Source: a virus. From it: DNA of 37,919 nucleotides. Below the pieces are notes generated by a model, which had not been told where the DNA came from, ran no database searches, and saw only the letters and a list, made by a program, of their open reading frames with translations. Of this stretch, positions 5,551-17,055 are shown piece after piece (position 1 is the stretch's first letter; the number at the start of each line of letters is the position of its first letter). The stretch spans positions 1 to 37,919 of IMG/VR virus record IMGVR_UViG_3300035660_000288; one strand, 5' to 3'. The translations under genes and the position numbers were made by a program.

Positions 5551-7065
5551 TTACAAAGCTGCTATAAACTTCTTGCCATTTCCCTGCGTCGGCAGGTGAT
5601 ATTCTATCTCCCCTTCGATTTTCTTATTCACCCTCTGCGCTCTTATCTCACTGATAAAGCCGCGCAGGACGATTGCTTTGCCCCTGTCGTCCTCCCTATC
5701 CAGCGCAATCCTGGCATTTTCCACTACCGTAATCATATCGATTTTGATATCTTGACGCGAACTGTCAACTTCCAATCCGGCGATCTGCTCTCTCAATTCT
5801 CCCTGATGTCCTTCGAGATCTCCCAACTCGGCAAGCAGAGCAGCCGAATGGCCGTGCTCCTTGATGGCTGAAATGATGCGGCCAATGGATACTTCCAGGT
5901 CGGCCAGGTCATGGCGGGCACGTTCGAGCGCGGTATCCTTTTCATCTCCCCGTGAGGCGATCTGAGAGCAGACTTCTTCATATATGTCGTTCAACACGAC
6001 CGGTTCCAGGATGCGCTGCTGCATGGCTGTAAGCACACGGGCCTCCAGCTCACCTTTCGGGATATATGGCGCACCGCAGTTATAACGTCCCCCTTCGTGG
6101 TTCTTGCAGCGGTAATAGTCGTATGACTTGTACTTCTGGCGGGATATCCACCCGTACATGAAATTGCCGCACAGGGAGCAGCGCAGCAGGCCTGTGAGGA
6201 TGAAGCGGCTGCGCAGCACGCGCGGATGGCTGCAGCCGTATCTTTCCATGTGCTGGCGGTTGACCTCCTGGGCAGCCTGCCACGTGGCTTGGTCCACAAT
6301 AGGCTCGCAGAAATCGGGGATCTCCATGCCGCCGTAATCGAATACGCCGGTGTAGATGCGCCTGCATAGCGTCCGGTTATATATCGTGATCCAATTGTGC
6401 AGGTGGGTGGCTTCGTGGATCTCGCGGTAGGTTGCCCCGTTAGCGCGCATCTCGAAGGCCAATTTGACCAGGGGCGCAACCTGGGGATCCGGGACCAGGC
6501 GGTTGACCAGGTGTGGGCTTCCGTCCCTGCGCCTGCCGATCTCAGCAGGAGAATAGAGATAGCCGAGCGGCGGCTTCCCTCCTGGCTTGGCGTGATATAC
6601 AGCGGCGATGAAACGCTGGCCGCGCTTGATGTTCTTGGATAAGTCTTCTGAATATTTGGCCGTCTTCCAGGCGGTAATAGACTCGAACAGTCGCCCATCG
6701 AGTGTGTCTGGGATGTGGTCGGTGATCGAGTAGACGGCGTATCCCTTACGGCGCAGGTAGGTGATGTAATATTGAAAATCGTCAAATTGTCTGGCTATAC
6801 GGCTGTATTCCCAGATGACCACCCCGGCTTCAGGTGCATTGCTTTCCAAGTAAGCGACCATCTCCAGGAATCCGTCACGTCCGGCCAGGGATGTGCCCGA
6901 CCTGGCCGCGTCCATGAAAAGGCGGGACAGGATGTAGCCGTTATCGCGGCACCACCTGCCGATGCTTTCCTGCTGCTGGGGGATGGATAGGTTCTGGTCG
7001 CGGCCACCACTGTCGCGCAAATAGGCGACCAGGCGAGAGCCGGCAGAGAAGGGTAGGTCTGACAT
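5551..7065 (-). CDS. Large serine recombinase (phage integrase)
   Basis: 504 aa. The resolvase-type N-terminal domain has the catalytic serine at Ser19 in YLRDSGGRDQNLS and a downstream WEYSRIAR motif near residues 85-92. A recombinase domain follows at about 150-290. A zinc ribbon uses Cys296, Cys299, Cys320 and Cys330, and a coiled-coil region lies at about 375-435, as in large serine integrases. It would catalyse site-specific integration between attP and attB. Its ATG overlaps the stop of the small upstream gene (TAATG), making it the last gene of the minus-strand operon that starts with the repressor. It converges on the endolysin with only 37 nt between stops. I could not locate attP. 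Length and domain order are complete, with no sign of decay. Confidence 0.93.
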   Translation of the reverse strand: MSDLPFSAGSRLVAYLRDSGGRDQNLSIPQQQESIGRWCRDNGYILSRLFMDAARSGTSLAGRDGFLEMVAYLESNAPEAGVVIWEYSRIARQFDDFQYYITYLRRKGYAVYSITDHIPDTLDGRLFESITAWKTAKYSEDLSKNIKRGQRFIAAVYHAKPGGKPPLGYLYSPAEIGRRRDGSPHLVNRLVPDPQVAPLVKLAFEMRANGATYREIHEATHLHNWITIYNRTLCRRIYTGVFDYGGMEIPDFCEPIVDQATWQAAQEVNRQHMERYGCSHPRVLRSRFILTGLLRCSLCGNFMYGWISRQKYKSYDYYRCKNHEGGRYNCGAPYIPKGELEARVLTAMQQRILEPVVLNDIYEEVCSQIASRGDEKDTALERARHDLADLEVSIGRIISAIKEHGHSAALLAELGDLEGHQGELREQIAGLEVDSSRQDIKIDMITVVENARIALDREDDRGKAIVLRGFISEIRAQRVNKKIEGEIEYHLPTQGNGKKFIAAL

Positions 7066-15269: not shown

Positions 15270-15815
15270 ATGACCAATCAACTGACAGTCAAAATCAATA
15301 TCCAAGACTGGCTCGAAGAATGCCAGCGAGACGAGCTCGAAGTAAAAGAAAAGGCAGACATCATCAAGGCCATCGAAGAGGGTAAAAGCACCTCTAAGGT
15401 TGCGTGCGCTGCATTGGTTTGCAGAGAACTCAGTGTGGCACAGGAGGACATAATCCGACCCAACAAGAGTCTTCTGCTTGACGGAGCAAGCGGCAATATC
15501 ATCAGCATAGTGCGCAATCAGACGCATGAGGTAACTCTATTCTCTGGTGCGGTTGAAGAAGTCCACGACTTCAACGGTCGTATTACCAATGTGAATGGAA
15601 CAGAACCGGAAGCCGAGGATGACACAGGTCCATCCTTCGTAGGAAAAAACGACCCGCTTTATATCAAGCGGGCGCAGAGATACCTCGAAGAACGTGTGCC
15701 AGGACATATCGAACCCCGACTGATACAAATCTACGAAAGCGGCGGAGATGTGCACGAGGCGATCAAGATGCTGCACACTATTTTAGATGAGATGGAGACG
15801 AGGATATTAGGGTAA
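15270..15815 (+). CDS. Hypothetical protein before the TIGR-like array
   Basis: 181 aa behind AGGAGG. Residues 1-110 show a strand-helix start and a DGASGNIISIVRNQTHEVTLF stretch; a linker (EPEAEDDTGP) separates a C-terminal helical part (YIKRAQRYLEERVPGHIEPRL). No family is recognised. Its stop codon (15813-15815) lies within a degenerate copy of repeat R2, so the array begins on the end of this gene and both probably share a transcript. Whether it belongs functionally to the array and Tas-like gene is unknown. Confidence 0.6.
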   Translation: MTNQLTVKINIQDWLEECQRDELEVKEKADIIKAIEEGKSTSKVACAALVCRELSVAQEDIIRPNKSLLLDGASGNIISIVRNQTHEVTLFSGAVEEVHDFNGRITNVNGTEPEAEDDTGPSFVGKNDPLYIKRAQRYLEERVPGHIEPRLIQIYESGGDVHEAIKMLHTILDEMETRILG

Positions 15816-16090
15816 GCCAACCAAAATATGAAACCCAAGCAGTCGGTGCGAGCCATAATCACAGTGAAACCCAAGTTGGTGGTGCGAGCCACACGTAACG
15901 TGAAACCCACATTCTGTGTGCGAGCCAATGTAAATATGAAGCCCAAAAGATGTGTGCGAGCCAGGAGAAGCGTGAAACCCATACGCCAGGTGCGAGCCAC
16001 ATAGTCTGTGAAATCCAAAAAAGTAGTGCGAGCCATCCCGCTCGTGAAACCCATGGACCGAGTGCGAAAGGACTATTCCTATGAAACCCA
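15810..16090 (+). repeat. TIGR-like array, upstream part
   Basis: Two 10-nt repeats alternate with 8-nt unique spacers at an exact 18-nt step, so each double unit is 36 nt. R1 (RTGAAACCCA) starts at 15828, 15864, 15900, 15936, 15972, 16008, 16044 and, after one extra base, 16081. R2 (RTGCGAGCCA) starts at 15846, 15882, 15918, 15954, 15990, 16026 and, degenerate, 16062; a further degenerate R2 lies at 15810. Spacers in order from 15838: AGCAGTCG, TAATCACA, AGTTGGTG, CACGTAAC, CATTCTGT, ATGTAAAT, AAAGATGT, GGAGAAGC, TACGCCAG, CATAGTCT, AAAAAGTA, TCCCGCTC, TGGACCGA. None repeats. Alternating repeats, a 36-nt period and the adjacent Nop-like protein match the TIGR (tandem interspaced guide RNA) design, in which 36-nt dual-spacer RNAs are made. 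Strand is taken from the gene; processing is inferred. Confidence 0.85.
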
Positions 16091-16851
16091 AGAACTCAGA
16101 CAGCGATAAGCGGCCCGACCCCAAGCCACGCAAGCTAGCCCACCTATGGCAAGCTTATCTGATTTGGTATGAGCTGGTTCAAATGCGCAAACGTCACATC
16201 CTGCGCATATCCTCCATCGAAAAAGGAAAGAGCAACCTGGATAAACCCGTTGAAACCGCCTTTCTGGAGGATATGCAATTGGACTATCGAATAAAGGAAA
16301 GAGACAAACAGATGATCGAATGGGGCGAAATGTCCGGCCCAATCTGGCAGTGGATCACCAGTATCCGAGGATTAAAAAGCGGCAGCCTGGCAGCGCAACT
16401 CCTGGCACAGATCGACGACATCGGCAAGTTTGCAACCGTCTCAAAGCTATGGCGATTTGCAGGTATGGCGGTCGTTGACGGTCATCGTGAATACGGCAAG
16501 AAAGGCGAAAAAAGCCACTACAACAAGCTGTTGGCTGCACTTTGCTGGATACTGTCAGATGAATTCATTAAACAGCAGACGCCTCTTTATGTTGAAATCT
16601 ACTATGAAGAGAAGGCCAGGCTAAGACGGCTATATCCTGAGCCGATCCCCATCCCGCCGGACAACGGTAGCAAGTGGAAAGAAAAATACACCGACTCTCA
16701 CATTGACCGCATGGCAAAGCGCAAGACGGTAAAGATATTTTTGTCTCATCTATGGCTGAAATGGCGTGAATTTGAGGGGTTGCCAATATCAGAACCCTAT
16801 GTTTTCGCAATCATGAAGCACACTAATATGATTGAGCCATGCCAGCTGTGA
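16081..16851 (+). CDS. tasA: TasA-like Nop-domain protein (IS110 C-terminal-like)
   Basis: 256 aa. After a basic N-terminus and a helical stretch (20-85), residues 90-235 resemble the Transposase_20 domain of IS110/IS116/IS902 transposases, which is related to the Nop domain: WITSIRGLKSGSLAAQLLAQ, then IDDIGKFATVSKLWRFAGM, a basic GKKGEKSHYNK segment, and HIDRMAKRKTVKIFLSHLWL. The IS110 N-terminal DEDD (RuvC-like) domain is absent, and no HNH or RuvC motif is seen. Within TIGR-Tas systems this composition corresponds to nuclease-less TasA. The ATG is the first codon of an R1 repeat, and its ribosome site AAAGGA lies in the degenerate R2 at 16062. The stop lies in another R1. A lone relic of an IS110 transposase is the main alternative; the flanking 36-nt arrays argue against it. 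Confidence 0.8.
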   Translation: MKPKNSDSDKRPDPKPRKLAHLWQAYLIWYELVQMRKRHILRISSIEKGKSNLDKPVETAFLEDMQLDYRIKERDKQMIEWGEMSGPIWQWITSIRGLKSGSLAAQLLAQIDDIGKFATVSKLWRFAGMAVVDGHREYGKKGEKSHYNKLLAALCWILSDEFIKQQTPLYVEIYYEEKARLRRLYPEPIPIPPDNGSKWKEKYTDSHIDRMAKRKTVKIFLSHLWLKWREFEGLPISEPYVFAIMKHTNMIEPCQL

Positions 16852-16919
16852 AACCCAAAATGGTCATGCGAGCCACCATGAATGTGAAACCCAATGAGAT
16901 AATGCGAGCCAGTGCATAG
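16848..16919 (+). repeat. TIGR-like array, downstream part
   Basis: Two further double units follow the Tas-like gene with the same 18-nt step: R1 at 16848 and 16884, R2 (as ATGCGAGCCA) at 16866 and 16902, with spacers AAATGGTC, CCATGAAT, ATGAGATA and then GTGCATAG. The first R1 contains the gene's TGA stop (16849-16851). Degenerate repeat-like words (GTGATGCAAAGTGAAGCG) run on to about 16950. The gene therefore sits inside one array rather than beside it. Confidence 0.8.
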
Positions 16920-17003: not shown

Positions 17004-17029
17004 TTAACCTAGCTGTTTGGGCAGACCAA

Positions 17030-17055
17030 CGGGGCCAATGGCCCCGTTTTTGTTT
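17030..17055 (+). terminator. Intrinsic terminator downstream of late promoter 1
   Basis: CGGGGCC and GGCCCCG form a 7-bp GC stem around AAT (17030-17046), followed by TTTTTGTTT. It lies only about 25-50 nt downstream of the predicted start from late promoter 1 and before the gene at 17073, so it would attenuate late transcription unless bypassed. Confidence 0.8.

What the first reader, a model, noticed from the sequence alone, without database searches (positions are those of the whole stretch)
15810..16919. A TIGR-Tas-type RNA-guided system in a phage
Seen: two distinct 10-nt repeats (RTGAAACCCA, RTGCGAGCCA) alternate with unique 8-nt spacers at exactly 18 nt, a 36-nt double unit, on both sides of a 256-aa gene. 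The protein has the IS110 Transposase_20/Nop-like pattern. Known: TIGR-Tas systems comprise arrays that yield 36-nt guide RNAs with two spacers, plus a Nop-domain Tas protein related to IS110 transposases and box C/D RNPs; some occur in phages. Inference: this is a new member with no nuclease domain (TasA-like).
Basis: partly seen in the sequence, partly recalled or inferred. Interest (0 to 1): 0.95.

Follow-up and report, generated by a model that had tools for sequence, protein, structure and literature searches.

The report
Phage TIGR-TasA RNA-guided DNA-binding system
A phage carries a compact RNA-guided DNA-binding system of the recently described TIGR-Tas type: one small protein without a DNA-cutting domain, encoded between two arrays that specify about nine two-part guide RNAs, with a previously undescribed partner gene that travels with it between otherwise unrelated phages.

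Summary
At 15811-16911, 9-nt repeats TGAAACCCA (loop) and TGCGAGCCA (edge) alternate exactly every 18 nt around 9-nt spacers: seven 36-nt units before and two after a 256-aa gene. The protein matches NCBIfam's TIGR-Tas model above cut-off, TasR (PDB 9mty, E 6e-23) and TasH. Its model (pLDDT 92) superposes on TasR (Z 22.7, 1.9 A) and has no nuclease domain: a TasA. The repeat pair alone, as a DNA query, recovered 47 IMG/VR phages; 39 encode a Tas, beside the arrays. So this is a new member of a known kind (TIGR-Tas, Science 2025). No target was found: spacer pairs match the own genome or other TIGR phages no more than control geometries do. Beyond the finding: (1) the ORF directly upstream (15270-15815) is conserved there in 9 of 12 members of this TasA clade, in phages sharing almost nothing else with the window: a candidate new TIGR partner; (2) two sister loci in that clade have stem-loop arrays running into the tas reading frame; (3) cultured Gordonia, Rhodococcus and Rhizobium phages carry unannotated stem-loop candidates.

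The parts
15270..15815 (+). 181-aa companion ORF directly upstream of array 1; its TAA stop lies in the truncated edge repeat
   Evidence: Homologs at the same place (ORF - array - tasA) in 6 phages found by repeat pattern and 2 found by tas sequence only; no Pfam, PHROG, PDB or fold match. Functional link is inference.
15811..16067 (+). TIGR array 1: seven edge/spacer A/loop/spacer B units, 5'-truncated edge GGTAAGCCA to 3'-truncated edge TGCGA
16063..16111 (+). possible decayed tigRNA unit carrying the gene's Shine-Dalgarno and start codon: TGCGAAAGG-ACTATTCCTA-TGAAACCCA-AGAACTCAGAC-AGCGATAAG
   Evidence: perfect 9/9 loop repeat at 16082; decay reading is inference
16081..16851 (+). tasA: 256-aa Nop-domain protein without nuclease domain; coiled coil about residues 20-83, Nop/RNA-binding part about 85-253
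16834..16911 (+). TIGR array 2: two units; 5'-truncated edge GAGCCA lies in the last tasA codons and the TGA stop in the first loop repeat
17028..17055 (+). intrinsic-terminator-like hairpin AACGGGGCCAATGGCCCCGTT + TTTGTTT, 117 nt after array 2
   Evidence: consensus match only

Best explanation
This is a dual-repeat TIGR-TasA system in a tailed phage. Shown: a Tas protein made of a coiled coil and a Nop domain with no nuclease, encoded inside an array of nine two-spacer units, with a conserved companion gene upstream. Inferred from the characterised relatives: companion, array 1, tasA and array 2 are transcribed together. The array RNA is cut within the edge repeats, with TasA's help and a host RNase, into 36-nt tigRNAs (half edge - spacer A - loop - spacer B - half edge). 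A TasA dimer binds one tigRNA through the UG and CCA boxes of both repeats. The RNP opens about 16-18 bp of target DNA, spacer A pairing with one strand and spacer B with the other, and bends the DNA sharply without cutting it. The most likely outcome is roadblock-type silencing or interference with the replication or transcription of rival mobile elements. The target and the biological role are not shown.
For: Repeat architecture as defined in PMC12045711: both repeats begin UG and end CCA, the loop is A-rich, the edge has the extra inner C-G pair, truncated edges at array ends. Protein: NCBIfam NF052498 TIGR_Tas 137 bits, cut-off 100; PDB 9mty TasR 6.3e-23 and TasH 6.1e-9, 3e-75 and 9e-39 with the profile; AF2 model pLDDT 92.4, Z 22.7 / 1.9 A / 201 residues to TasR, 21.1 to TasH, 15 to IS110-type recombinases, 7.5 to Nop5. 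Independent test: a DNA-only search with the repeat pair found 54 stretches; 39 of the 47 virus records, plus Microcystis phage Mvi-JY20, encode a Tas, with arrays beside it. The reverse test also held: a search with tas sequences alone returned four further loci, two with dual-repeat and two with stem-loop arrays.
Against: No RNA or binding data. No target found: 482 distinct spacer pairs against 1.58 Mb of TIGR phages give no excess over control geometries, and two window units searched in IMG/VR gave chance-like hits. The role as a rival-element silencer is extrapolated from what the paper speculates for TasA.
Confidence: 0.9

Rival explanations
1. The same TIGR-TasA RNP, but serving the phage's own DNA: RNA-guided bending or blocking at phage or bacterial attachment sites or regulatory sites to help integration or lysogeny control, as the discovery paper speculates.
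For: The phage encodes a large serine integrase (5551-7065, PHROG 95) and a repressor-like gene; TasR bends DNA by about 180 degrees.
Against: No spacer pair matches its own phage record at 0-1 mismatch in the correct geometry with 9-nt spacers; with 8-nt spacers 1 self match against 2-9 in the control geometries and shuffled partners.
Confidence: 0.12
2. An IS110-family transposase fragment with incidental flanking repeats.
For: Weak Pfam Transposase_20 match (E 0.034, below cut-off); PHROG 4285 is annotated transposase.
Confidence: 0.02
3. A TIGR-TasA locus that is degenerate or silent in this phage.
For: Only nine units; two loop repeats with one substitution; a perfect loop repeat overlaps the start codon in what looks like a decayed unit.
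Against: ORF intact and conserved; all eight full edge repeats identical; both spacers of every unit keep 9 nt.
Confidence: 0.04

Closest known systems
TIGR-TasA systems with dual-repeat arrays (e.g. Flavonifractor plautii FpTIGR; PMC12045711)
   Same: Solo Nop-domain Tas; alternating edge/loop repeats, 9-nt spacers, 36-nt unit
   Different: Arrays interleaved with both ends of the gene; conserved 181-aa companion upstream. Relation of this companion to the paper's TasParB is untested.
TaTasR (PDB 9mty) and SpTasH (PDB 21kl, 9w04)
   Same: Coiled coil + Nop domain, 33%/20% identity over aligned residues; UG/CCA repeats described for TasR
   Different: They carry RuvC or HNH nuclease domains; the window protein does not
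Microcystis phage Mvi-JY20 locus (PP438412.1, 21367-22434)
   Same: 39.6% identical Tas, edge repeat identical, 36-nt period, array ending in a truncated edge and terminator-like hairpin
   Different: Loop repeat begins CG instead of TG; no 181-aa companion found; annotated only as hypothetical protein
TIGR stem-loop arrays (PMC12045711 Fig. 7)
   Same: Two sister loci of the window's own clade (L182, L189) use them
   Different: The window has dual-repeat arrays; edge repeats stand where those have palindromic arms
IS110/IS621 bridge-RNA recombinases; box C/D Nop5
   Same: Nop-type RNA-binding fold (Z about 15 and 7.5)
   Different: No DEDD recombinase, bridge RNA or fibrillarin partner seen here

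Membership tests
TIGR-Tas (TasA, dual-repeat) | Tas protein with a Nop domain | tested here: met
   (NF052498, 137 > 100 bits)
TIGR-Tas (TasA, dual-repeat) | Adjacent array of two distinct alternating 8-12-nt repeats with about 9-nt spacers, several units | tested here: met
   9-nt repeats, 9-nt spacers, 7 + 2 units
TIGR-Tas (TasA, dual-repeat) | Both repeats begin UG and end CCA; edge has an extra inner pair, loop is A-rich (described for TasR arrays) | tested here: met
   TGCGAGCCA and TGAAACCCA; conservation over 565 edges and 618 loops
[quoted passage not shown]
   Array 1 both ends; array 2 start only, its last edge is complete. Set-wide: 42 of 77 starts and 49 of 74 ends truncated that way
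TIGR-Tas (TasA, dual-repeat) | Rho-independent terminator after the array (typical) | tested here: inconclusive
   Terminator-like hairpin at 17028-17055, 117 nt after array 2; the scan alone is not evidence
TIGR-Tas (TasA, dual-repeat) | TasA subtype: no nuclease domain | tested here: met
   Residues 13-256 align to the coiled coil and Nop part of TasR/TasH; the first residues are low-confidence coil
TIGR-Tas (TasA, dual-repeat) | Processing into 36-nt tigRNAs bound by the protein | not testable with these tools
   needs small-RNA sequencing
TIGR-Tas (TasA, dual-repeat) | Tandem-spacer DNA targeting | not testable with these tools
   no natural target found either
IS110-family transposase | N-terminal DEDD/RuvC-like recombinase domain | tested here: not met
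   no room for it in the 256-aa model; no DEDD family hit, Transposase_20 below cut-off

The most novel reading that the evidence does not exclude
The window shows a three-part TIGR cassette: a new TIGR-associated protein (the 181-aa upstream ORF, perhaps DNA-binding through a helix-turn-helix) works with TasA. In this one clade the guide array has switched between dual-repeat and stem-loop form, with tigRNA units nested in the tas coding sequence; the window's start codon inside a loop repeat would be a remnant of that. This could supply the effector activity that nuclease-less TasA lacks, and an evolutionary intermediate between the two array types.
Probability: 0.45. Interest if true: 0.65.

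Novelty: new member of a known kind. Interest (0 to 1): 0.45.

Why it matters
TasA is the commonest and least understood Tas type: what a guide-directed binder without a nuclease does, and how its arrays arise, are stated open questions of the discovery paper. This locus and its relatives give a handle on both: a companion gene that stays with tasA across unrelated phages, a clade holding both array types, closely related phage pairs showing how spacers change, and cultured phages with candidate loci.

Tried and rejected
Protein-only scans of viral and genome collections with the window Tas alone found no relative; the DNA repeat pattern was far more productive. No hit in plasmids, PADLOC or Rfam. 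Target search: A + reverse complement of B, the geometry I derived from the published 8-nt 3' overhang, gave 12 one-mismatch 18-nt matches in 1.58 Mb against 5-11 for control geometries and 11 for shuffled partners, none in the unit's own phage; so no self- or cross-targeting signal. IMG/VR scans of two window units gave 22 mostly unclustered hits and 0 hits, and a control geometry 2. Companion ORF: no Pfam, PHROG, PDB-sequence or significant Foldseek match; only weak Z 4-4.8 similarity of residues 26-84 to helix-turn-helix domains of transposases and a sub-threshold CENP-B_N match in one member. Identity with the paper's TasParB could not be tested for want of its sequence; no ParB family was hit. 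A search for further companion relatives with one member found only itself, and the companion alignment had no stretch conserved enough to search with.

Full report
OBSERVATION. The array is real and precise. Loop repeats TGAAACCCA and edge repeats TGCGAGCCA alternate every 18 nt, with 9-nt spacers, in seven units before and two units after the 256-aa ORF at 16081-16851. Array 1 runs from a 5'-truncated edge repeat (15811-15819) to a 3'-truncated one (TGCGA, 16063-16067). Array 2 begins inside the last codons (GAGCCA, 16834-16839), and the tasA stop codon TGA lies in its first loop repeat. The start codon lies in one more perfect loop repeat (16082-16090), 19 rather than 18 nt after the last edge. 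The window is a whole IMG/VR virus record.

IDENTITY OF THE PROTEIN. By sequence it matches TasR (PDB 9mty, 6.3e-23) and TasH (6.1e-9), and NCBIfam's TIGR-Tas model at 137 bits against a cut-off of 100 (the model's name says endonuclease, but this protein has no nuclease domain). The AlphaFold2 model built on 36 sequences has mean pLDDT 92.4. VIA-align gives Z 22.7, 1.9 A over 201 residues to TasR, 19-21 to TasH, about 15 to IS621/ISCro4 and 7.5 to archaeal Nop5.

MEMBERSHIP. The discovery paper (PMC12045711) describes dual-repeat TIGR arrays as two alternating 8-12-nt repeats, about 9-nt spacers, UG...CCA boxes in both repeats, an A-rich loop and an extra inner pair in the edge, and truncated edge repeats at array ends. 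These are met here. The repeats also allow a blind test. The bare pattern TGAAACCCA-N9-TGCGAGCCA, without any protein information, found 54 stretches in IMG/VR. Of the 47 virus records behind them, 39 encode a Tas; of the eight that do not, three have the array within about 250 nt of a contig end. In the records with a Tas the nearest arrays flank it, and some records hold further arrays kilobases away, e.g. G014 and G017. Microcystis phage Mvi-JY20 carries a 39.6% identical Tas followed by an array with the same edge repeat and a terminator-like hairpin. Edge positions are 91-99% conserved.

TARGETS. The published cut geometry (8-nt 3' overhangs) implies a target of spacer A followed by the reverse complement of spacer B (my derivation). 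482 distinct pairs against 1.58 Mb of TIGR phages gave no excess over control geometries or shuffled partners and no 18-nt self match with up to one mismatch. Two window units searched in IMG/VR gave chance-like hits. So what this TasA binds remains unknown.

A COMPANION GENE. The 181-aa ORF at 15270-15815 has homologs (25-35% identity) at the same place, companion - array - tasA, in six phages fetched by repeat pattern, and in two more (L182, L189) found by tas sequence alone (HMM E 8e-49 and 1e-31). In the tas tree these belong to one fully supported 12-row clade; 9 of 12 have the companion. Across whole records the window shares with each of the six phages only tas, the companion, and zero or one further real gene (the remaining matches are antisense reads of the arrays). 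That points to a cassette that moves as a unit. The companion has no recognisable family or fold; residues 26-84 weakly resemble helix-turn-helix domains. The paper reports a ParB-like gene operonised with some tasA genes; whether this is a divergent form is untested.

STEM-LOOP SISTERS. In L182 and L189 (TasA 53% and 47% identical to the window's, same companion) the arrays are of the stem-loop kind: palindromic arm, CCA, 8 nt, GTGATACCCA or GTGTTACCCA, about 8 nt, GTG, closing arm. L189 has nine such units and L182 seven in the scan; several lie inside the tas reading frame, in the poorly conserved region before the RPDPKPRK motif. Two of three units tested fold with z about -5; the third does not stand out. 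The pair is one clade (100/99), placed among dual-repeat members by a fork of moderate support (84/93). Most other rows in that tree were selected by having dual repeats, so the direction of change is not shown. The paper placed stem-loop arrays in separate clades; here both kinds occur with near relatives. The window's start codon inside a loop repeat may be a leftover of such nesting (inference).

MECHANISM. Steps shown here: gene, array, fold, family, conservation. Steps inferred from TasA/TasR/TasH experiments in the paper: transcription, processing to 36-nt tigRNAs, loading on a dimer, two-strand pairing, bending without cutting. Biological role: most likely silencing or blocking a rival element's DNA, not shown.

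VERDICT. It is a new member of a known kind, published in 2025 and already in NCBIfam. Interest comes mainly from the companion gene and the mixed-array clade.

Noticed in passing
window 15270-15815; also records G013, G014, G018, G023, G026, G037 and loci L182, L189: A 181-aa ORF of unknown family is conserved directly upstream of array + tasA in 9 of 12 clade members; the six fully compared share almost no other genes with the window: candidate new TIGR-associated protein.
   Followed up: yes
L182 2600-3015 (IMGVR 3300044786_000023), L189 2520-3022 (IMGVR 3300033429_000001): Stem-loop TIGR arrays in the same TasA clade as dual-repeat arrays, with several tigRNA units nested inside the tas coding sequence.
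   Followed up: partly
L005 1810-2228 and 3002-3050 (Rhodococcus phage Peregrin MH153807), L006 1894-2119 and 3000-3123 (Gordonia phage Morrissey MH271305), L004 1577-1802 and 3046-3226 (Rhizobium phage RHph_X2_25 MW960032): Cultured phages: a Tas homolog annotated as hypothetical is flanked by 7-25-bp inverted repeats mostly with loops of about 30 nt, several holding CCA - 8 nt - ...ACCCA: unannotated stem-loop TIGR candidates with known hosts.
   Followed up: partly
G002 = IMGVR_UViG_3300036863_000086, 44204-72210: One phage holds 103 dual-repeat units in seven arrays, some more than 20 kb from its tas gene, well above the 5-15 units called typical.
   Followed up: no
G035 versus G042; G022/G029 versus G025: Related arrays differ by point changes in spacers, loss or gain of whole units, duplicated units, and in one case replacement of spacer B while spacer A stays the same: a clue to how spacers turn over without an adaptation gene.
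   Followed up: partly
window 16063-16111: The tasA start codon sits in a perfect loop repeat flanked by degenerate edge repeats: a decayed unit reused as translation start, or possible self-regulation.
   Followed up: no
G017 (IMGVR_UViG_3300023284_003364): Edge repeats mostly read TACGAGTCA instead of TGCGAGCCA: positions 2 and 7 change together (G-C to A-T), as expected for the box C/D pair.
   Followed up: no
L002 3676-3816 minus (Mvi-JY20 XAI95462.1): A deposited hypothetical protein is only the antisense read of part of the TIGR array.
   Followed up: yes
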